Assembly (NCBI RefSeq): GCF_900142135.1
Contig: NZ_FQZU01000003.1
Location: forward strand, 1-64,000
Direction: 5' to 3'
Origin: Desulfatibacillum alkenivorans DSM 16219
Lineage (GTDB): Bacteria > Desulfobacterota > Desulfobacteria > Desulfobacterales > Desulfatibacillaceae
DNA length: 64,000 nucleotides
A program made the position numbers and the translations under genes. How positions within the stretch are numbered: position 1 is the stretch's first letter; the number at the start of each line of letters is the position of its first letter. The notes below the pieces were generated by a model. It saw only the letters and a list, made by a program, of their open reading frames with translations, searched no databases and was not told where the DNA came from. This document shows positions 46,201 through 62,954 of the stretch, in pieces.

Positions 46201-46539
46201 ATGAGTAAGCGGGGGTAACAGAAAAATCCAGAAGAGCAGGGAGCCATGCCGGCCGCCAAGATAGATGAAATATGTAAATAAAACGCTGGTGCAAAAAATC
46301 ACGACCCGGTATACGATCCGCCCGGAGGGCATGCGCTTCAATAATAAGAGCCCAAAGCCTATGACGGCGGCCATGGCAAAGTCCAGAGAACCCAGCCCGG
46401 CGTTGCCGTTCCATAGGTTAACCAGGCCGACAGTAATGCAAACGAAAACGCCGACATGGGCGGGTATGATAAAGAAGAGACGCCTTCTGTTCTCTTCATA
46501 ATCTGATTTTGGATTGTTAAAGTACGAAAAGTAATCCAT
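43204..46539 (-). CDS. Membrane hybrid histidine kinase (PAS-PAS-HK-REC-REC-HPt)
   Basis: An 1111-residue BarA-like hybrid kinase. The first 190 residues form about six membrane helices with almost no periplasmic domain. Two PAS domains (about 200-325 and 330-450), the dimerisation box (FVANMSHEIRTPMNG), the ATPase (TDTGIGIP, GGTGLGLSICKRL), two receivers (LIITDMQMPLMDG; LVLMDCQMPELDG) and an HPt with His in LKAHTLAGSSASVG follow. All phosphorelay residues are present. GAGGCGGG stands right before the ATG. It lies on the strand opposite to the che operon, end to end with it (12-base gap). Confidence 0.9.
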   Translation of the reverse strand: MDYFSYFNNPKSDYEENRRRLFFIIPAHVGVFVCITVGLVNLWNGNAGLGSLDFAMAAVIGFGLLLLKRMPSGRIVYRVVIFCTSVLFTYFIYLGGRHGSLLFWIFLLPPLTHFILGKKEGLWFSLGVYCLAAAIIIPPAEFTGAFPYPLAIKTRFLIVFLFSLITANRYEAIREEIQDGLNQERKKLKEANDTLQYLKTAIDHSVDGIAVAGPDRRIKFANPAWASMHGLTPKEVEGAHARIFHSAAQYENEVAPFLELVSAKGSNYGEMGHVRKDGTEFPCWMSISLIRGEGEDPTGVVAVAKDISERKAAEAALVASEERNRALLEATPDAVTVYDREGNLLYLNPAFEQLFGWTAEEVLGKPLDFVPSDERPKTDELIARMRKGESVLEETQRYTKDGRLLEIQASASMFWDKDGHFLGTVVISRDITDRKKAEEALKKAKKDAETANIAKSQFVANMSHEIRTPMNGVIGMTGLLLDTDLDERQREFAETIQSSAANLLTVINDILDFSKIEADKLELESIGFDLRFTLEDVSDLLAMKAQAKNLEFVCMVDPDVPSLLVGDPGRLRQLIINICNNAIKFTREGEVVVRVVGEEIKEDKAYLRFTITDTGIGIPEDKQNDLFAPFTQMDASTTREYGGTGLGLSICKRLVQLMNGEIGVSSRPGEGATFWFSLPFPRQTQSREPLATASIQGRKILIVDDNATNRRLLSVLLETWGCRHEEAPDARSALIKIKKAALEEKEPYSLIITDMQMPLMDGEELGRLIKNDPDLADSSLLMMTSIANRGDAARLSEIGFSAYLTKPIKQSVLFDCLQTVLGAHTPPRPKERKPIITRHAIAEAKKRRYRLLLVEDNLVNRKVALSILDNLGFKADAVSNGLEAISALEMQPYDLVLMDCQMPELDGYEATKRIRSTDSRVLNKGIPIIAMTAHAMAGDREKCIACGMDDYISKPVEPAALNQVVEKWLDNSNPPSEPAPPPSEPAPMPEEEAPVKAGTDVFDMEGLFSRLLEDSALVKDVLGAFLQELPNQIRTLHIALEERNLVLAGLKAHTLAGSSASVGACAIQAAAKDLETAAMDSDLNKSLAICEQLEKEGRLFGEAVRKTGILE

Positions 46540-46602
46540 CCCGCCTCAACATCGTTAAAAGCCGTTCCAGCCATATACCTCTGCTAACGGGAAAGCTCCC
46601 TG

Positions 46603-49452: not shown

Positions 49453-49518
49453 TCTTTATCCTGGTATTCTATAGAGCATCGCCACATTTACTGAACTCCC
49501 AATAGAAATACAAGAGTA

Positions 49519-52179
49519 TTATAGCGCCTCAATATGCAAATTGTCTCCTTTGGGCCAGAGATCCGCCCTGGACGCCAGGGAGTTGAGGTTCACAGGCTTG
49601 GCCAGGCAGGCGTTGGCGCCCGCCTCCAAGGCGGATTGGCAATCCGGACCGTCCTGTTTTTTGCTTAAAACAACCAAGGGAATGCCTTTGCCCGCCTCTT
49701 CCTCCCGGATGGATTTGATCGGGGCGTAGCTGTCGGAGGATAGCAAGGCTTCCTCCGCTATGATCAGGCTGACGTTTTCGTTTTCCTGCAAGCGCTCCAG
49801 GATTTCGCGGGCGTTCCTGGCGACAATGACCTTGGCCCCCACGTCGCCCAGGACTTTGCGCAAGGTGAAAACATGGCGCATGTCTCTGTCCGCAAGCAAA
49901 ATGAGCCTGCCGTTAAAAAAACGCTCGTTTTCGGGCTGCAGTTGCAAAGGCTCCTGCTTGGCGGGCGGGGCCGACTCCGGCTCCCCGGGAGCTCCCACTC
50001 CCTCCCACGGCCGGACTATGGGCGGATCCGCTGGCGCTGCATAGACTTCCGGGATGATCAGAGTGAAGGTGCTGCCCGCACCCGGCTCGCTTTCGGCGCG
50101 TACGGCGCCGCCTATGAGGCGGGCGATTTCCCGCGAGATGGTCAGCCCAAGGCCGGTTCCGCCGAACTCCCGGCTGGTGGTTCCGTCGGCCTGGGTGAAG
50201 GCTTCGAAGATTTCCTCCATTTTTTCCTGGGGAATTCCTATTCCTGAATCCGTCACGGAAAAAGCTGCGCATTTGCCCGGGGGATAACCGGGAAGGGCGT
50301 CCTCCTTCCTGGGGCGGCTTACCCGCAAAACCACGGAGCCTTGTTTGGTGAATTTTAAGGCATTGGAGATAAAATTACGCAGCACCTGCTCCAGTCTTTG
50401 GCTGTCTGACTGGATGTTTTGAGGAATGTCCGCGTCCATCCTGACGGAAAAATCCAGGCCTTTGTTCTTGGCCAGGGGCAGAAATTCCCTCTCAATAGCC
50501 TGGACAAAGGTTTTGGTCTCAAAAAAGGAGGTGTTCACCGCCATCTTGCCGGCTTCTATTTTGGAAAGATCAAGAACCTCGTTGATAAGCAGGAGCAGGG
50601 CTTTGCCCGAGGATTGGATGGCCTGGGCGCATTCCAGATCGCTGTCGGTGAGGTTTTTTTCCCGGTTTTCGCATAAAATCCCGGACAATAGAATAATGCT
50701 GTTTAACGGCGTTCGAAGCTCGTGGGATACATTGGCGAGAAACTGGGATTTGTACATGCTCCCCACTTCCAAGTCCCTGGCCCTGGCTTCCAGAAGCTCA
50801 TGGGCGTTCTGCAGCTCCACGTTCTTTTTTTCAAGCTGCTGATAGGCGTCCTGAAGCTTTTGCTCCGAGGCCTTTCTTTCGGTCACGTCCCGGCCGCTGA
50901 AAACCACGCCGCCCACGCCCGGAACGTCCATTTGGGAGTTTAGCACCCCCTCCAGCCAGTACCATCCGCCGTCCCTGTGGCGGAAACGAACGCCTTCCAG
51001 CTTAATGGGCCGCCCGGGATGAGTTAATGCTTTTTCCAGGGCTTTCTCCACCATGGAAACGTCCTTGGGGTGCATGTTGCGGCTGGTGTACTGGCCGATC
51101 ACCATTTCGGGCTTGTAACCGTAAGCGGAAAAAACGGAAGGGCTGGCGTAGGTGTAGGTGTTGTCCGGCCCTATGATCAAGGTGATGTCGGAGGAGTTTT
51201 CCGTCAAAGCCCGAAAGCGTTCTTCACTGGCCGTAAGCGCCCGGGCTGCATTGATGTCCTTGAGGGCTTCCACGCCGTGGGTGGCTATGAGGGCGGTCAG
51301 TTCCAGGTCCGCATCCGAAAAAGGGTCGTCCGCGGCCTTTGAGATGATGCTCAGACCCAGAATGCTTTTGTCCGGGGTAAAGATGGGGGTCAGCAGCAGA
51401 GAGGCGCCTTCACACCCCTCTAAGGCGGCGTCCAGATACCCAATTCCTTGTTCATAGGCATTGATGATAACCGCTTCTCCGGCGCTCCAGAGCTTATCCA
51501 GCAAGGCGTCCTGGCCGTCAGGCAAGGGGATGGACCACCCGGGGCGCTTGGCGTCGGTGGAGCATTTTAGTACCAGGACGTCATCCCTGCGCAGGAAAAA
51601 CCGCCCCTGCCCGGCCGTGGCGTTCTCCATCAAGGCGCTTAAAAGCATGGTGCACAGCTCGTCTTCTGTGTTGCAGGCAGTGAAAAACAGGGTGCAGTCG
51701 GTGATGTGCTTCAGCCTTCTGCTGTACTCCATGAGCTTTTCGGAGCGCTCCTGCACCAGGGCTTCGAGATTTTCCTGGTAATCCTTATTCTCCTTGCGCA
51801 ATTGCGCCCGCTCCAGGTTTTTTCTCACCGTGTGCAGGAGGATGCTAAGGCTTTCTATGGGCTTGAATATGTAGTCCCAGGCGCCCATTTTCAAGGCATT
51901 GACGGCGTCTCTGGCCACCCCGGCGCCGGAAACCACAATAAGCGGCACGTCCGGCGACTCCTTGCTTAGAATGGAAAGCACTTCCAGACCGTCCATTTCC
52001 GGCATACGCAGGTCGACCAGAACCAGGTCGGGTTTTTCCCGGCGAAAGAGCTCCACGCCCAACCGGCCGTTTGCAGCTTCCAGGACTTCATAGCCGTTAT
52101 CCTCCAGAAACGAGGCAAAGCTCCAGCGGATAGCGTCTTCATCGTCAATGGTCAAAATTTTGGGAGGTCCGCCTTCCAT
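49519..52179 (-). CDS. Soluble hybrid histidine kinase (REC-GAF-PAS-HK-pseudo-REC)
   Basis: An 886-residue kinase. A receiver (LVLVDLRMPEMDG; residues 1-125), a coiled coil, a GAF domain (about 160-310), a PAS domain (about 320-440), a His box with LANVSHELRTPLNS and an ATPase with TDSGIGIP and GGTGLGLTISREI follow. The last 120 residues have a receiver fold but the acceptor strand reads LIIAEEALLSSD, with no Asp in place, so it should not be phosphorylated. The N-terminal receiver is close to that of the preceding kinase. It begins 153 bases from the sigma-54 activator gene on the same strand. Confidence 0.88.
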   Translation of the reverse strand: MEGGPPKILTIDDEDAIRWSFASFLEDNGYEVLEAANGRLGVELFRREKPDLVLVDLRMPEMDGLEVLSILSKESPDVPLIVVSGAGVARDAVNALKMGAWDYIFKPIESLSILLHTVRKNLERAQLRKENKDYQENLEALVQERSEKLMEYSRRLKHITDCTLFFTACNTEDELCTMLLSALMENATAGQGRFFLRRDDVLVLKCSTDAKRPGWSIPLPDGQDALLDKLWSAGEAVIINAYEQGIGYLDAALEGCEGASLLLTPIFTPDKSILGLSIISKAADDPFSDADLELTALIATHGVEALKDINAARALTASEERFRALTENSSDITLIIGPDNTYTYASPSVFSAYGYKPEMVIGQYTSRNMHPKDVSMVEKALEKALTHPGRPIKLEGVRFRHRDGGWYWLEGVLNSQMDVPGVGGVVFSGRDVTERKASEQKLQDAYQQLEKKNVELQNAHELLEARARDLEVGSMYKSQFLANVSHELRTPLNSIILLSGILCENREKNLTDSDLECAQAIQSSGKALLLLINEVLDLSKIEAGKMAVNTSFFETKTFVQAIEREFLPLAKNKGLDFSVRMDADIPQNIQSDSQRLEQVLRNFISNALKFTKQGSVVLRVSRPRKEDALPGYPPGKCAAFSVTDSGIGIPQEKMEEIFEAFTQADGTTSREFGGTGLGLTISREIARLIGGAVRAESEPGAGSTFTLIIPEVYAAPADPPIVRPWEGVGAPGEPESAPPAKQEPLQLQPENERFFNGRLILLADRDMRHVFTLRKVLGDVGAKVIVARNAREILERLQENENVSLIIAEEALLSSDSYAPIKSIREEEAGKGIPLVVLSKKQDGPDCQSALEAGANACLAKPVNLNSLASRADLWPKGDNLHIEAL

Positions 52180-52332: not shown

Positions 52333-55300
52333 TTACTTTCTCTTGATTCCCAGTTTTTTGATGCGTGAAAACAAGGTGTTGTGATTGATTTCCAAAAGCT
52401 CGGCCGCCCCTCCCGGGCCGCGCACCTTGCCGCCTGTCTTTTTTAAGGCCCATAAAATATGACGGCGTTCGTTTTCCTCCAGGGAGACGGCATCCCGGTC
52501 CAGAGCGAAGGAGGCGCCGCTTTGGGAGAGATCCGGAATTTCCAAACGGGCGCCGGAGCTCAGGATTGCGCTTCTTTCGATGACGTTTTCCAGCTCCCGC
52601 ACATTGCCGGGCCAGTCATAGGCCACCAGTTTGTCCAGATCCTCCGGCGTGACGGCGCCCCGGGGCTTTCCCAGGTTCTTGGCGTGCCGATCCAGAAAAT
52701 AGTCCACAAGAAGAGGTATGTCTTCCTTGCGCTCCCTCAGGGGAGGAATTTTAAGGCTTAAAACATTGAGGCGATAGTACAGGTCTTCCCGGAATCTTCC
52801 GGTTTTCACGTCCTCCCGCAAATCCCGGTTGGTGGCCGCCAAGAGCCTGAAGTCCGACCGCAGGGTGGTTCTTCCGCCCACCCGTTCGAACTCCTTGTTT
52901 TGAAGGACCCGCAGCAGCCGGACCTGGACTTCGTGGGAGATGTCGCCGATTTCGTCCAAAAACAGGGTGCCTCCGTCCGCCAGTTCGAATCTGCCCAGGC
53001 GCCTTTTGTCCGCACCGGTGAAAGCGCCTTTTTCGTGCCCGAACAATTCGCTGGCTATGAGCCCTTCCGGAAACATGCTGCAGTTGACGCGGATGAATGG
53101 TTTGCCGGCTCTGGAGCTTCTTTCGTGGATGGCTGTTGAGATCAACTCCTTGCCCACGCCGGTTTCCCCCAAAATCAGGACCGTGGAGTCCGTGGCCGCA
53201 ATTTTTTTCACGTCATTCAAAACCTTGCGCACGGCCGAGCACTCGCCCACAAATTCCACGGGGGGCTGAAACTCGCTTTGCTGTTCCTCCAGATACCTCT
53301 TTTCCTCCTCCAGCTTGCGGATAAGAGCTCTGTTTTGTTCGTGAATCCGTGCGTTATCCAGCGCGATGGCGGCCTGGGAGGAGAAAAAATCCAGAATGCG
53401 GATGTCCGACTCCTTCAGGGCGCTGGGGAAAATCCGGTTATCCACGTACAGCACCCCCAGGACCGTCTCCCGGAATTTCATGGGAACGCAAATGCACGAG
53501 TGGACCACCTTATTTTCAAGGGGGTGGGACTGGCGGGGCGCCTCGGTGAGGCGAAACCGGGCGCGGCCCGTAAAGGCCGCTTCCCGCACCATTTTCATGC
53601 TGGATTGAAATTCGGGCCGGGAAATGTCCTGCTCCATGATGTTCCGGGCGGCCCTAAGGACCACGGCGGGCTTGCCGGTCTCCTTGTTGACCAGAAAGAC
53701 CGCGCCCCGCTCGGCGCCTGTAATGCGATTGACAGTGGCAAGAATATGACGCACCAGGTCCCGGTCGTTCCGGATGGTGGCCAGCTCCTGCCCCAGCTTC
53801 ATGATTTCCTCCAGCAGGTTTTTATCCGTGCGCAGGTCTTTTAAGAGGAATCGCAGATTGTCGGGAACCTGGTCGTGGAGAAAGGAGTCCAGTAGCTCGG
53901 CGCTTTTCTGCATGGCGCCTTTGGCTTTTTTTTCCTGGCCCATGGACAGGTACAGGCGGGCCATTTCCATGCGGGTCCGGGCGAGCTGAATCTCGTGGCC
54001 GGACTCCTCCAGCCATTTTTCCGAGAGCTTCATGGACCGGAGAACCTTGCTGGTCTCCACGCCCCTCTTTTCCTCCAAAAGGGCCTGGTACCGGTATGCT
54101 CCCCCTTTAATAAGGATGTTCCGGCTTTTTTGCCACTCCTTGAGATCTTCCATGGCCAAGGCCGCCTGGACCGCCGGAAGCTGGCCCTGCTCCATGGCCC
54201 AGAACATTTCGGCGTTTTGATAAATATGGGTTTCTATTTTAATGCCTCTCTCCCTTGTGACCCGCACAGCCTCGCTCAAATACGAAACCGCTTCCTTTTG
54301 GTTGTGGTTGCGGAAATGGGCCAGGGCCAGGTTCAGGCTGATGAGGATGGAGTTGTAGGTGTTGTTGGTCTGAAGGGCGTGGTCCAGGGCCAGGTCCAGG
54401 TAGTAGATGGCCTCTTCGTACTGCCCCAGCTCTATGAGCAGGCTGCCGATATGGTAGCCCACGTAGCTGCCCACGTACAAATCCCCTACGCTCCGGCATT
54501 TTTCATAAATGGCGTCCATGAGGCCCATGCCCCGCTTGATCTGGCCGTTGAAGGCATAGCAGACCCCCACCACCTGGGCGGACAGCATGGGAAAGCGGCC
54601 CCTGGGATACTTGTCGATGTCCGAGACCACCTCTTCGTAGTTGCGGATCACCTCCCGAAGCCTGCCCTGGGCGTACAGGAAAAAGGTGCTCAAAAACACC
54701 GCGGATCTTTTCAAAGCGGGGTCGTCGATCTTCTCCGCCAGGGCCCAGCCGCGATTAAAGTGGCGCATGGCCTGGTTGAAGTGGGAGCAAAACCACTCGT
54801 TTTTCGCCAAATGCATTTCCAGAAGCGCGGTATGGGCGTCGTCCTTCCGGTCCCGGGCCTTTTGCACCGCGGTTTTAAGGGGCGGCACCGTGGCTTCCAC
54901 GTCCGGCGCCAGCTCCACGATCTTGGAGACGGCGATAACCGCATTGGTGAACAGCTGGTACGCCTGGGTGGAGGCGGCCATTTCCAGGTCGTCGATGATT
55001 TTCTGGTAGCATTGAAGGGCCTTCTGGTGGCGGTGGGTCTTCCGGTAAATGTCCCCGGCCTTCATGAGGACCTTGCACTCCTGCTCGCCGTTTTTCAAAT
55101 GAATCAGGTGGCTGGAAGCCGCCAGGACAGCTTCGTCCTGGCTTTGCATCTCCCGGAAGTAAATTCCCGCGATGGAGCGGTGCCAAAGCTCCTTTTCCGC
55201 CTGGGGAACGGACTGGGCGATCTTTTTTCTTTGGGCCTCGTTTCTGAAGGAATAGACGCCGGGGCCTTCTTTTTGGAGGATTTTTCTTTCAAAGAGTTTG

Positions 55301-55449
55301 TCCAGCTCCTGGAGGATTTCGCTGGCTTTCAGGCCGGACATTTCCAGGATCCAGTCCACGGAGAAATTATCCTCGAACATGGCCATGAGGCTCAGCAGAC
55401 CATGGTCGGCGAGCCTTGGAAGAGAGGACGGGGTATTCAGGTCAGGCAT
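52333..55449 (-). CDS. Sigma-54-dependent activator with TPR and GAF regions
   Basis: A 1038-residue enhancer-binding protein. The N-terminal 560 residues are helical with TPR-like repeats (AGDIYRKTHRHQKALQCYQKII, EEAIYYLDLALDHALQ). A GAF domain (about 565-720) may bind a small effector. The AAA+ domain has Walker A GETGVGKE near 760, the sigma-54 contact loop GAFTGA near 805 and FLDEIGD. A Fis-type helix-turn-helix ends the protein. All key residues are intact, so it should activate sigma-54 promoters. ATG 55449 follows CGGAG at long spacing; the frame is open from 55536 but that part is not conserved-looking. It is divergent from the acyl-CoA operon, a likely target. Confidence 0.88.
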   Translation of the reverse strand: MPDLNTPSSLPRLADHGLLSLMAMFEDNFSVDWILEMSGLKASEILQELDKLFERKILQKEGPGVYSFRNEAQRKKIAQSVPQAEKELWHRSIAGIYFREMQSQDEAVLAASSHLIHLKNGEQECKVLMKAGDIYRKTHRHQKALQCYQKIIDDLEMAASTQAYQLFTNAVIAVSKIVELAPDVEATVPPLKTAVQKARDRKDDAHTALLEMHLAKNEWFCSHFNQAMRHFNRGWALAEKIDDPALKRSAVFLSTFFLYAQGRLREVIRNYEEVVSDIDKYPRGRFPMLSAQVVGVCYAFNGQIKRGMGLMDAIYEKCRSVGDLYVGSYVGYHIGSLLIELGQYEEAIYYLDLALDHALQTNNTYNSILISLNLALAHFRNHNQKEAVSYLSEAVRVTRERGIKIETHIYQNAEMFWAMEQGQLPAVQAALAMEDLKEWQKSRNILIKGGAYRYQALLEEKRGVETSKVLRSMKLSEKWLEESGHEIQLARTRMEMARLYLSMGQEKKAKGAMQKSAELLDSFLHDQVPDNLRFLLKDLRTDKNLLEEIMKLGQELATIRNDRDLVRHILATVNRITGAERGAVFLVNKETGKPAVVLRAARNIMEQDISRPEFQSSMKMVREAAFTGRARFRLTEAPRQSHPLENKVVHSCICVPMKFRETVLGVLYVDNRIFPSALKESDIRILDFFSSQAAIALDNARIHEQNRALIRKLEEEKRYLEEQQSEFQPPVEFVGECSAVRKVLNDVKKIAATDSTVLILGETGVGKELISTAIHERSSRAGKPFIRVNCSMFPEGLIASELFGHEKGAFTGADKRRLGRFELADGGTLFLDEIGDISHEVQVRLLRVLQNKEFERVGGRTTLRSDFRLLAATNRDLREDVKTGRFREDLYYRLNVLSLKIPPLRERKEDIPLLVDYFLDRHAKNLGKPRGAVTPEDLDKLVAYDWPGNVRELENVIERSAILSSGARLEIPDLSQSGASFALDRDAVSLEENERRHILWALKKTGGKVRGPGGAAELLEINHNTLFSRIKKLGIKRK

Positions 55450-55543
55450 GGGCGTCTGCTCCGAAGGAAAGCAATTTTCAACCGGTTTGGAAGACCGGGG
55501 AGAGCATAGCCTGAGGGGGGCGTGGAAGTCAAGCATTATGAAC

Positions 55544-55916: not shown

Positions 55917-57047
55917 ATGTTCGCATTTACCAAGGCGCAACAGGCGATACGCAAAGCCGCAAAGGACTTTGCCAAGGGGGAATTGGACAAGGAAACCATT
56001 ATCCAATGGGAAAAGGACGGAGCCTTTCCGACGGAAGTTTGGGAAAAGGCGGCGGACCTGGGCTTTTTGGGCATGCATCTGCCTGAAAAATACTCGGGGG
56101 GGGGCTTGGGCATGCTGGACAGCGTGGTCACCCTGGAAGAGATCTGCCGCAAGGACTCCACCGTGGGCGTGGCCTTGGGATATGCGGCTCACGGAGCGGA
56201 ATGTCTTGCCAAGTGGGGAAGCGACGCCCTTAAGGAGGCTTTTTTGCCCAAGGTTCTGGAAGGGGAAATGCTTTCCGCGGGCGCGTTCGGAGAAAGCCGG
56301 CGGGGCGGCGACCTTTCCGCGGAAGCCGTTACGGCGGAGAAGGAAGGCGGCGAGTGGGTGATCAACGGCCAGAAAACCTATGTGCCCAACGGCGGCCTGG
56401 CGGGATTTTACATTGTCCTGTGCAAGACCGGGGACGCCGCCAGCCTGATTCTGGTGGAAGCCGACCGCACCGGGCTCTCCGTGGAAGGCCTGGGCCGCAA
56501 GCTGGGGGGAAACATGACTCCCACGGCGAACATCGCCTTTGATAAAGTGCGGGTCCCCGCCGGCAACCTGGTGGGCGAGGAAGGCAAGGGGCTTGCTTAC
56601 GCCAAGGAGTTCACCGCGGAAAACAAGATTCTTTTGGCCGCCCAGGCTTTGGGGACGGCCTTCGGCGCTTACGACCGCATGATGGAGTACGTCAAGGGCC
56701 GGGAGCAGTTCGGCCGGAAACTGGCCCAGTTCCAGGTCAGCCAGCACAAGATCGCGGACATGGCCGTGAAAATCGAATTATCCGCCTTGATTACCTACAA
56801 GGCCGCCTGGGTGCGGGACGAAGGCAAGATGGATCCGACCTTGTGCTCCATGGCGAAGATGACGGCCTGCCGTACGGCCATGGAAGTCAGCGCCCAGTCC
56901 ATCCAGCTTTTCGGCGGATACGGATTCATGACCGAGTACGAAGTGGAGCGCTCCTACCGGGACGCCAAAACCCTGGAAGTCATGGCCGGCGCCGCCGCCG
57001 TGCAAAAGGACATCATCGCCCAAAGCGCCATCGGCAGGATTCGGTAG
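55917..57047 (+). CDS. Acyl-CoA dehydrogenase family protein lacking the usual catalytic Glu
   Basis: A 376-residue acyl-CoA dehydrogenase fold. FAFTKAQQAIRKAAKDFA begins the helical domain; the middle beta domain has GAFGESRRGGDLS; the C-terminal helices have REQFGRKLAQFQVSQHKIADM and QLFGGYGFMTEYEVER. Where most family members have Glu in YEGTSEI, this one has VMAGAAAV. At the alternative base position used by long-chain and isovaleryl-CoA enzymes (Glu of ER) it has Asn in AENKILL. It may be a non-catalytic partner of the next gene product, or use another base. FAD and electron-transfer flavoprotein binding should be kept. GGGAG precedes the ATG. Confidence 0.87.
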   Translation: MFAFTKAQQAIRKAAKDFAKGELDKETIIQWEKDGAFPTEVWEKAADLGFLGMHLPEKYSGGGLGMLDSVVTLEEICRKDSTVGVALGYAAHGAECLAKWGSDALKEAFLPKVLEGEMLSAGAFGESRRGGDLSAEAVTAEKEGGEWVINGQKTYVPNGGLAGFYIVLCKTGDAASLILVEADRTGLSVEGLGRKLGGNMTPTANIAFDKVRVPAGNLVGEEGKGLAYAKEFTAENKILLAAQALGTAFGAYDRMMEYVKGREQFGRKLAQFQVSQHKIADMAVKIELSALITYKAAWVRDEGKMDPTLCSMAKMTACRTAMEVSAQSIQLFGGYGFMTEYEVERSYRDAKTLEVMAGAAAVQKDIIAQSAIGRIR

Positions 57048-57108
57048 CCGCTTCTAACCAAAATACCCGCAGCCCCCAGGGGCTGGACAGGCATAATAAG
57101 GAGAAATC

Positions 57109-58251
57109 ATGGGAGTTTTAAAATACACCGAAGATCATGAGCGGTTCCGCCTGCAGGTGCGTGAATATATGGAGAAGGAAGTGCTTCCCCATACCATGGA
57201 ATGGGAGGAAGCCCATATCGTTCCCAAAGAGGCCTGGAGAAAGATGGGCGAGGCCGGATACCTTTGCCCTTGCGTTTCCAAGGAATACGGCGGCCCTGGG
57301 CTTGACTTCCTGTATTCGGTCATCATCACGGAGGAAATGGCGGCCGTCGGCCAGGCCGGCCTGGCGGCCATGCTTCACAGCGATATTGTGGTGCCCTACA
57401 TCAATACCTACGGCACGGAAGAGCAAAAGAAAAAGTACCTGCCCGGATGCGTGTCCGGCGCAATCATCACAGCCGTGGCCATGACCGAGCCCGGCGCAGG
57501 CAGCGACGTGGGCGGCCTGGAGGCTACGGCCGAAGAAGACGGCGACGAGATCGTCATCAACGGCGTCAAGACCTTCATCTCCAACGGCATCAACTGCGAC
57601 CTGGTCGTTCTGGCGGCCCGCAATCCCGAGATAGCCGACAAGCACGCCGGCGTCTCCCTGTACCTTGTGGAGGACGGAACGCCCGGCTTCACCCGGGGCA
57701 AGCATTTGGACAAAATGGGCATGCACAGCCAGGATACGGCCGAACTCTTCTTCTCCAACTGCCGCATTCCCAAGGAAAACATCCTGGGCCAAAAAGGCCA
57801 CGGGTTCCTTATGCTCATGGAAAAGCTCCAGCAGGAGCGTCTCATGAGCGCCATAGCCAACGTGGCCGGAGCGGAAACCGCGCTCAAGTGGGCGGTGGCC
57901 TACGCCAAGGAAGCCATTGTGGACGGCAAGCCCTTGAGCAAATCCCAGGCCGTCAAGTTCAAACTGGCTGAAATGGCGACGGATATCAACCTGAACCGGG
58001 CCTTTTTGGACAACCTGATCAACGACCACATGGCGGGCAAGGACGTGACCGCGCAAACCATGATGTCCAAATACGCCAGCTCGGAAATGATGAACCTCCA
58101 GATCTCCGACATCATGGATTTGTTCGGGGAATACGGACTCCTGGAGTCCTCTCCTGTGGCCCGCGGCTTCCGGGATCAGCGCATCACCACCATTTTTGCA
58201 GGAACAACGGAAATCATGAAAACCATTATCGCCAAGTCTTTGGGCCTTTAG
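57109..58251 (+). CDS. Acyl-CoA dehydrogenase (long-chain / isovaleryl type active site)
   Basis: A 380-residue acyl-CoA dehydrogenase. Features are LGLDFLYSVIITEEM, the AMTEPGAGSDVGGL substrate/FAD loop, VKTFISNG and the C-terminal FAGTTEIMKTIIAKSLG. The classical Glu of YEGT is Ala here, but the alternative Glu is present in KLQQERLMSA, as in long-chain and isovaleryl-CoA dehydrogenases, so it should be active. It introduces a trans-2 double bond into an acyl-CoA and passes electrons to ETF. AAGGAGAAA precedes the ATG. It follows the degenerate dehydrogenase gene by 61 bases, so the two may form a mixed tetramer. Confidence 0.9.
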   Translation: MGVLKYTEDHERFRLQVREYMEKEVLPHTMEWEEAHIVPKEAWRKMGEAGYLCPCVSKEYGGPGLDFLYSVIITEEMAAVGQAGLAAMLHSDIVVPYINTYGTEEQKKKYLPGCVSGAIITAVAMTEPGAGSDVGGLEATAEEDGDEIVINGVKTFISNGINCDLVVLAARNPEIADKHAGVSLYLVEDGTPGFTRGKHLDKMGMHSQDTAELFFSNCRIPKENILGQKGHGFLMLMEKLQQERLMSAIANVAGAETALKWAVAYAKEAIVDGKPLSKSQAVKFKLAEMATDINLNRAFLDNLINDHMAGKDVTAQTMMSKYASSEMMNLQISDIMDLFGEYGLLESSPVARGFRDQRITTIFAGTTEIMKTIIAKSLGL

Positions 58252-58313
58252 CCCCAGGCTGGCTTTAGCGACTCTTAATTGCTTTTTAACCCCTGAAAAC
58301 AAAGGAGTTTATC

Positions 58314-59135
58314 ATGGAAAAAATGCTGGATGGCAAGGTAGCCATTATTACGGGTTCCGGTCGCGGAATCGGCAAAGCCGCAGCTATGCTGTTCGCCGCT
58401 GAAGGCGCCAAAGTGGTTGTCAGCGACATCGACCCCGCCCCCGCCGAGGAAACCGTGGCTGAAATCAAGGCCGCAGGCGGAGAGGCCATCGCCTACGCAG
58501 GCGACGCCACGGCCGACGATTTCGCGGAAGGCATTGTGAAAGCCGCTGTGGACGCCTGGGGCGGTTTGCATATTATCGTGAACAACGCCGGTTACACCTG
58601 GGACGGCGTGGTCCATAAAATGACCGACAAGCAGTGGGACGCCATGATGGCCATCCACTTGAGAACCCCTTTCCGCCTCATCCGTGCGGCCGCTCCTTAT
58701 TTCAAGGACGCCGCCAAAAAGGAAATGGCTGAAGGCGGCCCCGTGGCCCGTAAGATCATCAACATTTCCTCCGTCTCCGGCACCCGCGGAAACGCTGGCC
58801 AGATCAACTATTCCTCCGCCAAGTCCGGCCTTTTGGGCATGACCAAAACCATGGCTCAGGAGTGGGGCCGCTACAACGTCCAGTCCAACGCCGTGGCTTA
58901 CGGCTGGGTGGAAACCCGCCTGACCGCGGCCAAGGAAGACGCGGGCGCCGTGGATCGCGACGGCGAGAAAGTCGCCCTGGGCATTCCGGACGCACAGCGC
59001 CAGATGATGAAAATGGTCATCCCCATGGGCCGCGGCGGAACGCCCGAAGAAGCTGCAGGCGTGATCCTGTTCCTGGCTTCTCCCCTGTCCAACTACGTTT
59101 CCGGCCAGTGCATTGAAATGACCGGCGGCATGTAA
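58314..59135 (+). CDS. SDR-family oxidoreductase (3-hydroxyacyl-CoA dehydrogenase-like)
   Basis: A 273-residue short-chain dehydrogenase. The nucleotide-binding TGSGRGIG (residues 14-21), NNAG near 91 and the catalytic Ser, Tyr and Lys of NISSVSG and YSSAK are intact. The C-terminus ends in GQCIEMTGGM. In this operon it is most likely the NAD-dependent oxidation of a 3-hydroxyacyl-CoA. FabG-like reductase use cannot be excluded from sequence. AAAGGAG precedes the ATG. Confidence 0.9.
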   Translation: MEKMLDGKVAIITGSGRGIGKAAAMLFAAEGAKVVVSDIDPAPAEETVAEIKAAGGEAIAYAGDATADDFAEGIVKAAVDAWGGLHIIVNNAGYTWDGVVHKMTDKQWDAMMAIHLRTPFRLIRAAAPYFKDAAKKEMAEGGPVARKIINISSVSGTRGNAGQINYSSAKSGLLGMTKTMAQEWGRYNVQSNAVAYGWVETRLTAAKEDAGAVDRDGEKVALGIPDAQRQMMKMVIPMGRGGTPEEAAGVILFLASPLSNYVSGQCIEMTGGM

Positions 59136-59145
59136 AAGACTATTA

Positions 59146-59230
59146 GGCGCCCTCGAATACGGGGGCGCCTTTGCACGACCCGATATCTATATAACCCGGG
59201 CGGCCCTGGGGGTCTTAAGCATGGCCGCCC
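59146..59230 (+). other. Two hairpins between the SDR and the HMGS-like gene
   Basis: GGCGCCC (59146-59152) pairs with GGGCGCC (59163-59169) and is followed by TTTG, like a weak terminator or attenuator. A second pair, GGGCGGCC (59198-59205) and GGCCGCCC (59223-59230), lies 47 bases before the next start. They may set the ratio of upstream to downstream gene expression within the operon. Confidence 0.5.
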
Positions 59231-59276
59231 ATTCCACTCAGTGCGGATGCCGCACAGGATATCTGAAGGAGGTCCA

Positions 59277-60734
59277 ATGGCTGGAATATGTTCATACGGC
59301 GGTTACGTACCGCGCTATCGCTTGAACCGCGGCCTGGTCTACGGCGCCATGGGATGGATGAATCCCGCAAATATCGCCAATGCCAGGGGGGAAAAAGCGG
59401 TGGCAAACTTTGACGAAGACAGCATCACCATGGCCGTCGCCGCGGGCATCGATGCATTAAAGGGCGTGGACAAATCCACCGTGGGCGGCGTGTACTACGC
59501 TTCCACCACCATGCCTTACAAAGAAAGGCTTAACGCCGGCATTATCACGGCCGCCCTGGGCCTTAACGATCAGATTCGCGCCGCGGACTTTTCCGGCGGA
59601 ATCAAAGCCGGAACCACCGCTCTCTTAGCCGCCCTGGAAGGCGTGGCCGCCAAGGGCGTGGACAATGTGGTTGTCACGGCATCCGACTGCCGGCTCGGCA
59701 AGCCCGCTTCTCCCCAGGAGTTGATTTTCGGCGACGCCGCGGCCGCTCTGGTTGTGGGATCCGAAAACGTGATCGCCGAATTCAAGGGCGCTTACTCCAC
59801 CACTTACGACTTTGTGGATCACTACCGCGGCGAAACCGCCAAGTTCGACCGCGCCTGGGAAGACCGCTGGATCCGCGACCTGGGCTTCGCCCAACTGGTG
59901 CCTGAAGCCGTGCAGGGCCTGCTGGAAAAAACCGGCCTGGCCATGACCGACTTCGCCAAGGTGGTGTATCCCTGCCACTACGGGGCCGCCCGCAAAGGCC
60001 TTAACAAGAAATTGGGCATCACCCCTGAGCAGGATCAATCCAACCTTCAGGTTGAAATCGGGGAAACCGGAACGCCCCATTCCCTGGTCATGTTCGTCAA
60101 AGCTCTGGAGGAGGCCAAACCCGGCGACAAGATTTTGCTGGTGAGCTTTGGAAGCGGTTGCGACGCACTGGCCTTTGAAGTCACCGAAAACATCACCAAG
60201 TTGGCCCCCCGCGCCGCCATCACCGGAAGCCTGGCCAACAGGGCTGACCTGGATAACTATACCAAGTACTTGATCTGGCGGGATATCCTGCCCGGAGACG
60301 CCGGCCTCAGGAGCGAAGAAGACCTGTGGACCCGTTGGTCTCAGCTCTGGAGAAAACGCAGGGAAGTCCTGGGCCTTTGGGGCACCAAATGCCAGGCTTG
60401 CGGCACGGTGCAATATCCCAAGCAGCGCATCTGCGTGAATCCCGAGTGCGGCGCGGCCGATCAGATGGAAGAATACTGCTTTGCCGACAAAGTCGGGACG
60501 ATCGCCAGCTACACCGGCGACAACCTGGCCGCTTCCGTCAATCCGCCCGCCATTTACGGCCAGGTGGTTTTTGAAGAAGGCGGCAAGTACATGTTTGACT
60601 TTACGGATTGCGATCTGGACTCCCTGGCCACGGGTATGCCTGTTGTCGTGAGCTTCCGGAGGAAGTACTCCGATAAGCATAGGGACATTGCCGGTTATTT
60701 CTGGAAAGCAGTTCCCAAAAGAGAGGAGGCGTAA
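59277..60734 (+). CDS. HMG-CoA synthase-like protein fused to a DUF35 OB-fold
   Basis: A 485-residue fusion. Residues 1-345 have the HMG-CoA synthase / thiolase fold (GGYVPRYRL, PQELIFGDAAAALVVGSE, YPCHYGAARKGL with a candidate active His, LVSFGSGCDALAFEV). In archaeal HMG-CoA synthases the nucleophile sits in a CKAGT motif; here it reads SGGIKAGTTAL, so the Cys is replaced by Ile. Residues about 365-480 form a DUF35 domain: a Zn ribbon (CQACGTVQYPKQRICVNPEC) and an OB fold that can bind CoA. It may be an aldolase- or lyase-type or scaffold subunit for the thiolase encoded next. AAGGAGGT precedes the ATG. Confidence 0.8.
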   Translation: MAGICSYGGYVPRYRLNRGLVYGAMGWMNPANIANARGEKAVANFDEDSITMAVAAGIDALKGVDKSTVGGVYYASTTMPYKERLNAGIITAALGLNDQIRAADFSGGIKAGTTALLAALEGVAAKGVDNVVVTASDCRLGKPASPQELIFGDAAAALVVGSENVIAEFKGAYSTTYDFVDHYRGETAKFDRAWEDRWIRDLGFAQLVPEAVQGLLEKTGLAMTDFAKVVYPCHYGAARKGLNKKLGITPEQDQSNLQVEIGETGTPHSLVMFVKALEEAKPGDKILLVSFGSGCDALAFEVTENITKLAPRAAITGSLANRADLDNYTKYLIWRDILPGDAGLRSEEDLWTRWSQLWRKRREVLGLWGTKCQACGTVQYPKQRICVNPECGAADQMEEYCFADKVGTIASYTGDNLAASVNPPAIYGQVVFEEGGKYMFDFTDCDLDSLATGMPVVVSFRRKYSDKHRDIAGYFWKAVPKREEA

Positions 60735-60736
60735 TC

Positions 60737-61945
60737 ATGGCTGACGGAATTAGAGATAAAGTCGCCATCCTGGGTATGGGATGCACCAAGTTCGGCGAAC
60801 GGTGGGACTGCAGCGGCGAAGACCTGATGGTGGAATCCTTTTTGGAGTGCCTGGCGGACGCCGGCATCGAGAAAAAGGAAATTCAAGCCGCCTATTTTGG
60901 CGTTCATATCGATGAAGTGAACGTGGGCAAGGCCGGAACCCCCCTGGGCGCCGCCCTCAAGCTCCCCTTCATCCCCATTACCAGAACGGAAAACTTCTGC
61001 GCCACGGCCACGGAAGCCTTCCGGGCCGCCACCTACGCTGTGGCCTCCGGGGCCTATGACATCGTTCTGGCCCTTGGCGTGGAAAAGCTGAAAGACACCG
61101 GTTACGGCGGACTTCCCGGCGGCGCCGCTTTCGGTACGGAAATGTTCCTGCGCGGCTCCAACGCCACGGCCCCGGGCCTTTTCGCCCAATTGGCCACGGC
61201 TTACGCCGCCAAGTACGACATTCCCATGGAAAAGATCAAGGACGCCATTGCTCATATTTCGGCCAAAAGCCATTACAACGGCTCCTTGAACCCCAAGGCC
61301 CACCTGAGGAAAGCGGTGCCGGAAGAAGCCATCAAGGCCGCTCCCATGATCGCTTATCCCCTGGGACTGTTCGACTGCTGCGGCGTGTCCGACGGCTCGG
61401 CCGCGGCCATCGTCACCACCCCGGAAATCGCCAAGAGCCTCAAGCCCAACCAGGACATCGTCAAGGTCAAGGCCCTGCAGATTTCCGTCAGCTCCGGCGA
61501 AGAAGAAACCTACACCAACTGGGACGGGGCCCACTTCGCCACCACCCGCGTGGCGGCGACCAAGGCTTACGAAGAAGCCGGCATCAAGAATCCGCGCGAA
61601 GAAGTGAGCATGATGGAAGTCCATGACTGCTTCTCCATCACCGAATTCGTGACCATGGAAGACGTGCACATCTCTCCCAAGGGCGGCGCATACGAAGACG
61701 TCATGAACGGCTTCTACGACCTGAAGGGCGGCGGAGTTCCCTGCCAGGTGGACGGCGGCCTCAAGTGCTTCGGCCACCCCATCGGCGCTTCCGGCCTCCG
61801 GATGATCTACGCCATGTACGAGCAGCTTTTGGAAAGAGTTCCGGAAGAGCGCGCAGTCAAGAACGCCAGGTTCGGCCTCACCCATAACCTGGGCGGCACC
61901 CCGGCCAAGAACGTGGCTGCCATCTCCATTATCGGAAGGGATTAG
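60737..61945 (+). CDS. Thiolase family protein (SCP2-thiolase-like)
   Basis: A 402-residue thiolase-fold protein. The nucleophilic Cys is in TENFCATATEAFRA near residue 92. The HD region MMEVHDCFSITEF and the CFGHPIGASGLRM motif (active His) follow. The C-terminal THNLGGTPAKNV replaces the second catalytic Cys block of biosynthetic and degradative thiolases, as in SCP2-type and Ltp2-like proteins. It could cleave a 3-oxoacyl-CoA or act as a retro-aldolase. It begins two bases after the HMGS-DUF35 stop with a strong GAGAGGAGG site; the two products probably form one complex. Confidence 0.87.
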   Translation: MADGIRDKVAILGMGCTKFGERWDCSGEDLMVESFLECLADAGIEKKEIQAAYFGVHIDEVNVGKAGTPLGAALKLPFIPITRTENFCATATEAFRAATYAVASGAYDIVLALGVEKLKDTGYGGLPGGAAFGTEMFLRGSNATAPGLFAQLATAYAAKYDIPMEKIKDAIAHISAKSHYNGSLNPKAHLRKAVPEEAIKAAPMIAYPLGLFDCCGVSDGSAAAIVTTPEIAKSLKPNQDIVKVKALQISVSSGEEETYTNWDGAHFATTRVAATKAYEEAGIKNPREEVSMMEVHDCFSITEFVTMEDVHISPKGGAYEDVMNGFYDLKGGGVPCQVDGGLKCFGHPIGASGLRMIYAMYEQLLERVPEERAVKNARFGLTHNLGGTPAKNVAAISIIGRD

Positions 61946-61977
61946 TATTTCCTCCCTCCGACATGAAACAAAAAGCA

Positions 61978-62010
61978 GCCGCCCGGCCCTCAAACTCAGG
62001 GCCGGGCGGC
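61978..62010 (+). other. Strong intra-operon hairpin
   Basis: GCCGCCCGGCCCT (61978-61990) pairs without mismatch with AGGGCCGGGCGGC (61998-62010) around a seven-base loop. No T run follows, and the ribosome site of the next gene comes directly after (AAAGGAGG). It looks like an mRNA processing or stability element, not a terminator. Confidence 0.75.
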
Positions 62011-62032
62011 CTCCGGAAAGGAGGTCATTTTA

Positions 62033-62524
62033 ATGGCAGAGAATTTCCAAATTACCGAAGAAATGCAAGCTCTTGTGGGTTGGGAATCCGCCCCCTGGGA
62101 CTTTGAAGTGACCGCCACCAGCGTGCGGGCCTTCGCCAGGGGCGTGGGCTACACCGATCTGGTGTATTACGACGTGGAAGCCGCCAAAGCAGCCGGCTAC
62201 CGCGATCTTCCCGCGCCTCCGTCCTACCTGGGCACGGCGATTTTCATCCCGGGCCGGAGCGACGAATACCTTCCTTTTCCGCCCGGCTACTCCCCGCCTT
62301 TGGATCACGGCCTGTTGGGGCTCTTGGACGGCGGAACGGAAACCGAATATTTTGAAGACATATGCGCCGGAGACACCCTCACTTGCGTGAACAAACTGGC
62401 AAGCCTGGCCACCAAGGAAAGCAAAGGCCTGGGAACCATGCTCATCATGGGCACGGAAGCCGCGTACACGAACCAGAACGGCAAGGTCGCAGCCATTCAG
62501 CGCAGCCAGGTCATTCTATATTAG
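62033..62524 (+). CDS. MaoC N-terminal-type (FAS1-like) dehydratase subunit
   Basis: A 163-residue hotdog-fold protein of the FAS1-like dehydratase / MaoC_dehydrat_N family (SVRAFARGVGYTD, LPAPPSYLGTAIF, LDGGTETEYFEDICAGDTL). Such proteins usually lack the catalytic Asp-His pair and form heterodimers with a MaoC subunit, making room for long or bulky acyl-CoA. The next gene encodes that partner. AAAGGAGGTCAT precedes the ATG. Confidence 0.84.
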   Translation: MAENFQITEEMQALVGWESAPWDFEVTATSVRAFARGVGYTDLVYYDVEAAKAAGYRDLPAPPSYLGTAIFIPGRSDEYLPFPPGYSPPLDHGLLGLLDGGTETEYFEDICAGDTLTCVNKLASLATKESKGLGTMLIMGTEAAYTNQNGKVAAIQRSQVILY

Positions 62525-62537
62525 GAGGGAGGACAGC

Positions 62538-62954
62538 ATGGCAATTACATGGGAAGCAATCAACGAAGGAGACCTGATCCCGGAACTGAAAAAATGCCCG
62601 GGGGTCACCCAGCTTGTCAAATACGCCGCCGGCTCCGGGGATTTCAATCCCTTGCACCATGATTATAATTTTCCCCAGTCCAAAGCCATTGGCTCCATTA
62701 TTGTGCACGGCCGCTTTAAATACGCCGTCATCGGCGAATGCGTCTCCAATTGGCTGGACCATGCAGGCCGCATCAAGAAAATGTCCTGCCAATACCGGGG
62801 CATGGATTTTCCGGATCAGGAAATCACCTGCAAAGGAACCGTGGTCCGCAAGTTTGAGGAAAACGGGGAAAAACTGGTGGAGCTTTCCGTTTGGACGGAA
62901 AATCCCGAAGGCAAAAACACCACCCCCGGCCTTGTGGTGGCGGCTTTTAAATAA
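62538..62954 (+). CDS. MaoC-family enoyl-CoA hydratase subunit
   Basis: A 138-residue hotdog-fold MaoC protein. The (R)-specific hydratase motif is intact: AAGSGDFNPLHHD with catalytic Asp and His, then GSIIVHG. It adds water to a trans-2-enoyl-CoA. With the preceding N-terminal-type subunit it should form a heteromeric hydratase. GGAGGGAGGAC precedes the ATG, 13 bases after the partner gene. It is the last gene of the operon; the terminator is about 240 bases downstream. Confidence 0.87.
   Translation: MAITWEAINEGDLIPELKKCPGVTQLVKYAAGSGDFNPLHHDYNFPQSKAIGSIIVHGRFKYAVIGECVSNWLDHAGRIKKMSCQYRGMDFPDQEITCKGTVVRKFEENGEKLVELSVWTENPEGKNTTPGLVVAAFK

What the first reader, a model, noticed from the sequence alone, without database searches (positions are those of the whole stretch)
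59277..61945. HMG-CoA synthase-like domain without nucleophile, fused to DUF35 and paired with a thiolase
The expected Cys is Ile (SGGIKAGT against the archaeal CKAGT form), and a DUF35 OB-fold is fused behind. The thiolase gene starts two bases later. Archaeal thiolase, HMGS and DUF35 form one complex with a shared CoA pocket, and DUF35 also partners Ltp2-type aldolases. This operon may encode a degradative version that does not make HMG-CoA.
Basis: partly seen in the sequence, partly recalled or inferred. Interest (0 to 1): 0.62.

Follow-up and report, generated by a model that had tools for sequence, protein, structure and literature searches.

The report
Dead HMG-CoA-synthase scaffold for a thiolase
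A protein that looks like the enzyme making HMG-CoA, but has lost its catalytic residues, is fused to a zinc/OB-fold linker and sits next to an intact thiolase in a fatty-acid-type breakdown operon, so it is most likely a scaffold for a degradative thiolase and is easily misnamed as HMG-CoA synthase.

Summary
The 485-residue protein at 59277-60734 has an HMG-CoA-synthase (HMGS) fold joined to a DUF35 zinc-ribbon/OB domain; the thiolase ATG follows after two bases. Against archaeal HMGS (6ESQ) the nucleophile (Cys114 to Ile109), Glu82 (Thr77) and His238 (Pro232) are all gone. Of 94 distinct sequences compared, none has the Cys or the Glu and one has the His, while the partner thiolase keeps its catalytic residues in every row that covers them. 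The domain is under purifying selection. The genome (probably Desulfatibacillum) has no HMG-CoA reductase match but has DXP reductoisomerase. The operon supplies a full beta-oxidation round. A paralogue in the same genome is one 910-residue HMGS-like/DUF35/SDR/SCP2 chain beside a thiolase. Best reading: a retired HMGS domain serving as scaffold, and probably part of the CoA site, of an SCP2-type degradative thiolase. The retro-aldol idea is not supported (HDCF, not YDHF/YDCY). PhlA of the PhlACB acylase already lacks the same Cys and Glu, so this is a widespread new variant of a known kind. Complex formation, substrate and activity are untested.

The parts
59277..60296 (+). HMG-CoA-synthase-like (thiolase-fold) domain, residues 1-340; T77, I109 and P232 in place of Glu82, Cys114 and His238 of 6ESQ chain I
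60297..60734 (+). DUF35 part (zinc ribbon with C372, C375, C386, C391, then OB fold), fused behind; end includes the stop codon
60737..61945 (+). SCP2-type thiolase, nucleophile Cys88, HDCF at 296-299, GHP with His347; starts two bases after the previous stop
55917..57047 (+). acyl-CoA dehydrogenase 1; lacks Glu at both base positions compared, so possibly a non-catalytic partner
57109..58251 (+). acyl-CoA dehydrogenase 2; Glu at the long-chain-dehydrogenase-type position (LQQERL), closest solved relatives 2pg0 and 8w0t
58314..59135 (+). short-chain dehydrogenase, likely 3-hydroxyacyl-CoA dehydrogenase (inferred)
62033..62524 (+). hydratase half without the D-x-N-P-x-H motif (FAS1_DH_region, HadA-like)
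62538..62954 (+). MaoC/HadB-like hydratase half with the motif DFNPLH
52333..55536 (-). divergent sigma-54 activator with TPR and GAF domains, candidate regulator (an 84% identical one is also beside the close relative in L020)

Best explanation
The operon encodes one round of beta-oxidation of an unidentified, possibly branched or bulky acyl-CoA. Its last enzyme is an SCP2-type thiolase that works in a complex with an HMGS-like/DUF35 fusion protein. The HMGS-like domain no longer catalyses the HMGS reaction. By analogy with the archaeal thiolase/HMGS/DUF35 complex and with PhlACB, it most likely packs against the thiolase through the DUF35 domain, completes the shared CoA site and shapes the cavity in which the thiolase cleaves the 3-oxoacyl-CoA. 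Shown here: the fold, the loss of Glu/Cys (and, but for one row, His) in the sequences compared, the intact thiolase, the gene order, no HMG-CoA reductase match, purifying selection. Inferred: the physical complex, the CoA-site role, the direction (thiolysis) and the substrate.
For: Of 94 distinct sequences (window included) 0 have Cys, 0 have Glu and 1 has His at the three columns. The partner thiolase keeps Cys88 in 60 of 60 rows, and the His and Cys of HDCF and the His of GHP in 58 of 58 rows that reach that far; the whole HDCF is invariant in the 45-row alignment. A same-strand thiolase lies within 1.5 kb downstream in 60 of 65 distinct copies (78 of 84 with repeated loci). HMGS-domain dN/dS is 0.088 in one pair, window against L020. 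No HMG-CoA reductase match in the genome, with the same search ringing in 5 of 14 control genomes; DXP reductoisomerase present. All four beta-oxidation activities in 16 of 35 relative loci, 0 of 20 control stretches. Ten distinct relatives, one of them this genome's paralogue, are fused onward to an SDR, nine of the ten also to SCP2. PhlA lacks the same Cys and Glu, and only PhlC residues take part in acyl transfer (PMC6392133 passages).
Against: No complex was modelled or measured; the structure tool folds one chain only. Gene order does not give direction, so a biosynthetic Claisen step is not excluded. None of the seven operon genes is a CoA ligase, CoA transferase or transporter, so the substrate is open. 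19 of 35 relative loci do not show all four activities nearby, and Liv-type transporter parts are no commoner there (5 of 35) than in controls (3 of 20). One relative (L096) has no thiolase next to it. One relative (L138) has a His at the His column. Conserved C233 and C295 in the closer clades could mean some remaining chemistry.
Confidence: 0.74

Rival explanations
1. It is a true HMG-CoA synthase with an unusual or relocated nucleophile, making HMG-CoA for isoprenoids or another pathway.
For: The profiles that hit best are HMGS profiles: PRK04262 224.1 bits, TIGR00748 161.9 bits. C233, next to the lost His position, is Cys in 49 of 88 distinct rows. One distant relative, L138, has a His at the His column.
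Against: Both hits are below the curated cut-offs (244 and 353.35). Cys and Glu are absent in 94 of 94 sequences, His in 93 of 94. No HMG-CoA reductase match in the genome. The rows with C233 are those of 43% identity and above (50 of 55 rows); by subtraction the more distant rows have none.
Confidence: 0.03
2. The thiolase works as a retro-aldolase of the Ltp2/Sal kind, cleaving 3-hydroxyacyl-CoA, with DUF35 as partner.
For: DUF35 partners thiolase-fold aldolases in steroid breakdown (PMC12329534 passages).
Against: The aldolases carry YDHF or YDCY; here it is HDCF, with Cys88 and GHP kept in the rows that cover them. The operon has an SDR that could make the 3-oxo substrate of a thiolase, and the paralogue has an SDR fused on. 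The best family match is PRK06157, named acetyl-CoA acetyltransferase, 655.9 bits, cut-off 403.
Confidence: 0.06
3. It is a PhlACB-like acyltransferase moving acyl groups to or from a phenol or another carbon nucleophile, not a beta-oxidation thiolase.
For: PhlA-type chains are the best profile match and the first Foldseek row of the HMGS-like part, although VIA-align puts 6ESQ_I first.
Against: The thiolase is closer to the archaeal acetoacetyl-CoA thiolase, SCP2 thiolases and the benzoylsuccinyl-CoA thiolase than to PhlC. The surrounding genes are acyl-CoA dehydrogenases, SDR and hydratases.
Confidence: 0.07
4. The complex runs in the synthetic direction, a Claisen condensation making a branched 3-oxoacyl-CoA, with the other genes reducing it.
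For: Thiolases are reversible (established knowledge). HadAB-like hydratases and FabG-like SDRs also occur in synthesis (family matches).
Against: Two acyl-CoA dehydrogenases here, and in relatives CaiB-type CoA transferases (13 of 35 loci, controls 1 of 20) and acyl-CoA synthetases (13 of 35, controls 2 of 20) nearby, point to activation and breakdown.
Confidence: 0.1

Closest known systems
PhlACB / CsATase multi-component acyltransferase (PDB 5M3K, 5MG5, 9SKH)
   Same: HMGS-like subunit without the catalytic Cys and Glu, DUF35 subunit with a zinc ribbon, active thiolase-fold subunit with Cys88 and His347; best profile match and first Foldseek row for the HMGS-like part
   Different: DUF35 is a separate subunit there; acyl transfer to phenols without CoA; biosynthetic operon; thiolase partner more distant
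Archaeal acetoacetyl-CoA thiolase/HMGS/DUF35 complex (PDB 6ESQ, 6ET9)
   Same: Same three folds; HMGS part superposes with Z 47.1, 1.8 A over 337 residues, the first VIA-align row; its thiolase is the best solved match of the partner
   Different: There the HMGS has Cys114 and Glu82 and serves the mevalonate pathway (PMC6392133 passages); here those residues are lost and DUF35 is fused
Benzoylsuccinyl-CoA thiolase BbsAB (PDB 7PXP, 7PYT)
   Same: Thiolase with a DUF35-type partner (TaBbsA in a DUF35 alignment), ending the beta-oxidation of benzylsuccinate (pathway recalled)
   Different: No HMGS-like subunit (recalled); BbsB profile gives only 129.7 bits against a cut-off of 750
Ltp2-ChsH2 and Sal-Shy steroid aldolases (PDB 6OK1, 9MYR)
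   Same: Thiolase fold bound by a DUF35 domain that is fused to another side-chain-degrading enzyme
   Different: Aldolase motif YDHF/YDCY; here the thiolase residues are intact
MucABC acyltransferase (PDB 9VBO, 9VBT)
   Same: HMGS-like subunit, Z 41.7 to the model, with a thiolase-like partner
   Different: MucA/B/C are held responsible for C-3 acetylation in tetramate biosynthesis (PMC10161427 passages); 21% identity

Membership tests
HMG-CoA synthase (archaeal type) | Catalytic Cys (Cys114 in 6ESQ chain I) | tested here: not met
   Ile109; 0 of 94 distinct sequences has Cys, one has a gap there
HMG-CoA synthase (archaeal type) | Catalytic Glu (Glu82) | tested here: not met
   Thr77; 0 of 94 has Glu, 4 have Asp
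HMG-CoA synthase (archaeal type) | Active-site His (His238 by alignment; its role is recalled from other HMGS) | tested here: not met
   Pro232; 1 of 94 sequences (L138) has His
HMG-CoA synthase (archaeal type) | HMGS fold | tested here: met
   Model pLDDT 91.5; Z 47.1 to 6ESQ_I
HMG-CoA synthase (archaeal type) | Curated family score | tested here: not met
   161.9 of 353.35 (TIGR00748) and 224.1 of 244 bits (PRK04262)
HMG-CoA synthase (archaeal type) | HMG-CoA reductase elsewhere in the genome | tested here: not met
   0 matches to PF00368; the search rings in 5 of 14 control genomes
Thiolase/HMGS-like/DUF35 complexes (PhlACB, 6ESQ type) | All three modules encoded together | tested here: met
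Thiolase/HMGS-like/DUF35 complexes (PhlACB, 6ESQ type) | DUF35 zinc ribbon with four Cys | tested here: met
   C372, C375, C386, C391; kept in 85-86 of 88 distinct rows, two of which have no DUF35 part
Thiolase/HMGS-like/DUF35 complexes (PhlACB, 6ESQ type) | Physical complex with a shared CoA site | not testable with these tools
   The structure tool folds single chains only
PhlACB acyltransferase proper | CoA-independent acyl transfer to phenols | not testable with these tools
   needs an assay
SCP2-type thiolase | Nucleophile Cys, HDCF and GHP residues | tested here: met
   C88, H296-D-C298-F, H347; invariant in the rows that cover them
Ltp2/Sal aldolase | YDHF or YDCY motif | tested here: not met
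   HDCF in the window and in all rows of a 45-row alignment; motif definition from PMC12329534 passages
BbsAB benzoylsuccinyl-CoA thiolase | BbsB family score | tested here: not met
   129.7 of 750 bits

The most novel reading that the evidence does not exclude
A retired HMG-CoA synthase has become the hub of a bacterial beta-oxidation metabolon. The HMGS-like/DUF35 module docks the 3-hydroxyacyl-CoA dehydrogenase (covalently in the HMGS-like/DUF35/SDR/SCP2 paralogues, as a separate operon partner here) onto the thiolase and keeps the CoA end of the substrate bound in its old CoA site while the acyl end moves between active sites. In the closer clades the conserved C233 beside the dead site may add a new function.
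Probability: 0.28. Interest if true: 0.68.

Novelty: new variant of a known kind. Interest (0 to 1): 0.45.

Why it matters
Matches to this protein (E 1e-20 or better) occur in 109 of 395 sampled genomes of the phylum (only part of them read residue by residue) and in 47 plasmid records, among them Sphingobium, Rhodococcus and Variovorax. They carry names such as hydroxymethylglutaryl-CoA synthase or OB-fold domain-containing protein. Reading them as mevalonate enzymes would probably be wrong. They suggest that an enzyme fold can be kept, under purifying selection, as part of another enzyme's assembly, here in a breakdown pathway, and the HMGS-like/DUF35/SDR/SCP2 fusion makes a testable case for hand-over of intermediates between two successive beta-oxidation enzymes.

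Tried and rejected
Retro-aldolase reading: rejected on the HDCF motif and intact thiolase residues. HMG-CoA synthesis: rejected on residues, family cut-offs and the lack of a reductase match. Relocated nucleophile: C233 and C295 were checked; both vary between clades, and no coordinates were available to measure distances, so this is left open. A thiolase partner fused into the same polypeptide was suspected from the open-frame lengths; it proved to be an SDR-SCP2 extension instead. Liv-type transporters as a sign of the substrate: dropped, as they are no commoner near the relatives (5 of 35) than in controls (3 of 20). The thiolase dN/dS is not used, because the two genes differ in length by one codon and were not aligned. 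The DUF35 part was not folded or searched on its own. My first counts (64 distinct sequences, 88) left out five plasmid loci fetched later (L134-L138) and the incomplete L050; one search adds all six, which brought in the one row with His (L138). The paper on the archaeal complex (PMC5879682) and a guessed DOI for the BbsAB paper are not held. Statements about the BbsAB pathway and its lack of an HMGS-like subunit, the His role, heteromeric acyl-CoA dehydrogenases and the long-chain-dehydrogenase Glu position are recalled. Open-access text searches for this architecture gave no paper seen to describe a bacterial HMGS-DUF35 fusion; of the papers they list I saw passages of six (PMC6392133, PMC12329534, PMC8084838, PMC12955522, PMC10398937, PMC6996347) and only the listing of three (PMC6163223, PMC6722718, PMC7794910). 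The searches were otherwise seen as listings, apart from passages of PMC10161427. PDB 9VBO/9VBT gave no paper.
Full report
WHAT IS THERE. The window lies in a 6.47-Mb genome of 102 contigs. A genome of the same genus (G370) has its copy on a contig of 49116 bases, the length of the record of L020, Desulfatibacillum sp. MAG7, so the genus is very probably Desulfatibacillum. On the plus strand, 55917-62954 carries two acyl-CoA dehydrogenases, an SDR, the HMGS-like/DUF35 fusion, a thiolase, and two small hydratase-type proteins. A sigma-54 activator is divergent at 52333-55536. The fusion runs from ATG 59277 to 60734 and the thiolase ATG is at 60737, two bases later.

THE HMGS SITE. The first 340 residues have the HMGS fold: the AlphaFold model has mean pLDDT 91.5 and pTM 0.93, and VIA-align gives Z 47.1, 1.8 A over 337 residues with 6ESQ_I, and 45.5 with 9SKH_C. 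On a MAFFT alignment with 6ESQ chain I, Cys114 falls on Ile109, Glu82 on Thr77 and His238 on Pro232. The final set has 94 distinct sequences, window included. They came from loci and the 30 loci, the last chosen by the archaeal HMGS profile and not by the window protein. 0 of 94 has Cys, 0 has Glu and 1 (L138, a Sphingopyxis plasmid) has His at the three columns. At the Cys column the residues are L 38, I 15, T 13, Q 11, V 6, P 4, A 2, M 1, S 1, F 1, R 1 and one gap. Before these six were added the set was 94 rows, 88 of them distinct, 92 rows fused to DUF35 and 2 standing alone. In the profile search over 297 genomes no genome had a match over the family cut-off, while three archaeal control genomes did. 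Only the 30 loci given by that search were read residue by residue.

WHAT IS KEPT. The zinc cysteines 372, 375, 386 and 391 are kept in 85-86 of 88 distinct rows; two rows have no DUF35 part. The residue after the lost Cys is K in 44 and R in 44 of 88. G152, G262, G265 and others are invariant in 59 rows. dN/dS of the HMGS part against L020 is 0.088 and of the DUF35 part 0.067, one pair. So the domain is constrained although its catalytic residues are gone. Two other cysteines deserve care: C233, beside the lost His, is Cys in 49 of 88 distinct rows, and C295 in 44 of 88. C233 is Cys in 50 of 55 rows of 43% identity and above; the counts leave none for the more distant rows. I could not measure distances.

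THE THIOLASE. In 60 partner thiolases, window included, Cys88 is kept in 60. The His and Cys of HDCF and the His of GHP are kept in all 58 rows that reach that far, and the four letters HDCF are invariant in a 45-row alignment. SCP2 thiolases have HDCF, while the DUF35-bound aldolases have YDHF (Ltp2) or YDCY (Sal) (PMC12329534, passages seen). The best family profile is PRK06157, 655.9 bits with cut-off 403, and BbsB gives 129.7 of 750. The nearest solved relatives are the archaeal acetoacetyl-CoA thiolase, a Pyrococcus thiolase, SCP2 thiolases, a Sulfolobus thiolase-like protein and benzoylsuccinyl-CoA thiolase, with PhlC and Ltp2 further off.

CONTEXT. A same-strand thiolase lies within 1.5 kb downstream in 60 of 65 distinct copies, or 78 of 84 with repeated loci. 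Of the six misses, four (L025, L028, L032, L050) lie at a contig edge, L101 has an annotated thiolase that my ORF and gap rule missed, and L096 shows none. In 35 relative loci of at least 14 kb, all four of acyl-CoA dehydrogenase, SDR, thiolase and hydratase occur in 16, against 0 of 20 control stretches of 16 kb at positions picked by hand in genomes of the same set. One by one, relatives against controls: thiolase 34 of 35 and 2 of 20; SDR 26 and 0; hydratase 23 and 0; acyl-CoA dehydrogenase 20 and 2; CaiB-type CoA transferase 13 and 1; acyl-CoA synthetase 13 and 2; Liv-type transporter parts 5 and 3, so these last are not enriched. The test counts blast matches to 29 reference proteins and does not prove operons; an SDR fused to the query protein counts as SDR; a few genomes give two loci. 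The own genome has no HMG-CoA reductase match but has DXP reductoisomerase.

THE PARALOGUE. The same genome codes at C76:87514 (L060:7015-9744) for a 910-residue protein, HMGS-like, DUF35, SDR and SCP2 in one chain, followed by its thiolase and an acyl-CoA dehydrogenase and preceded by a 703-residue MFE-2-type hydratase/SDR/SCP2 protein. Ten distinct long fusions were seen; nine are 910-928 residues and one (L089) is 810. All ten match the SDR part of L060, and nine match its SCP2 part; L089 does not. An SDR of this kind would make the thiolase's 3-oxo substrate (inference), so the fusion ties two successive steps together and favours a thiolase over an aldolase.

A SECOND THEME, weaker. The hydratase pair and the dehydrogenase pair also look like one active and one inactive half: the motif D-x-N-P-x-H is in 13 of 14 rows of the second hydratase gene and 0 of 14 of the first. 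Acyl-CoA dehydrogenase 2 has Glu at the long-chain-type position in 23 of 26 rows; dehydrogenase 1 has Glu at neither position in 5 of 7 rows, the window copy among them, and keeps the common Glu in 2 (repeated loci included).

MECHANISM. Most likely the HMGS-like/DUF35 protein is the scaffold and part of the CoA site of a degradative thiolase. Shown: fold, residue losses, intact thiolase, gene order, selection. Inferred: complex, CoA role, direction, substrate. PhlA shows that an HMGS-like subunit without Cys and Glu can serve such a complex: in PhlACB only PhlC residues act, yet the whole operon must be expressed (PMC6392133 passages; PMC12955522 passages).

NOVELTY. Each element has a precedent: HMGS-like subunit without Cys and Glu (PhlA), DUF35 with a degradative thiolase (BbsAB, recalled), DUF35 fused to another side-chain-degrading enzyme (ChsH2, Shy). 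The combination in a beta-oxidation operon, its spread (matches in 109 of 395 sampled genomes) and the fusion to SDR and SCP2 were not found described in the papers seen. I rate it a new variant of a known kind.

Noticed in passing
L060:7015-9744 (own genome C76:87514-90243): Paralogue with four modules in one chain: HMGS-like, DUF35, SDR, SCP2; preceded by an MFE-2-type hydratase/SDR/SCP2 protein and followed by a thiolase and an acyl-CoA dehydrogenase.
   Followed up: yes
own genome C73:4500-8800 and C19:45400-49700 (loci L004, L008, L011, L014, L015, L017, L018): Two further clusters where several thiolase-fold genes lie with separate DUF35/zinc-ribbon genes; possible BbsAB- or Ltp2-like sets.
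   Followed up: no
window 55917-57047 and 62033-62524: Each may be a catalytically degenerate partner of the gene beside it: a dehydrogenase without Glu at either base position compared and a hydratase half without its D-x-N-P-x-H motif.
   Followed up: partly
window residues C233 and C295 of the fusion (near 59973 and 60159): Cysteines next to the position of the lost His and in the C-terminal glycine loop, conserved in the closer clades but not family-wide; role unknown.
   Followed up: partly
L120 and L129: HMGS-like proteins without the catalytic Cys that are not fused to DUF35 but have a separate DUF35-like ORF nearby.
   Followed up: partly
L138:7980-9410 (Sphingopyxis plasmid): The only one of 94 distinct sequences with a His at the HMGS His column; it still lacks Cys and Glu.
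   Followed up: no
window 43204-52179, minus strand: Three long minus-strand ORFs (1111, 949 and 886 aa); the one at 49519-52179 reads like a response-regulator/PAS/histidine-kinase hybrid by eye; not analysed.
   Followed up: no
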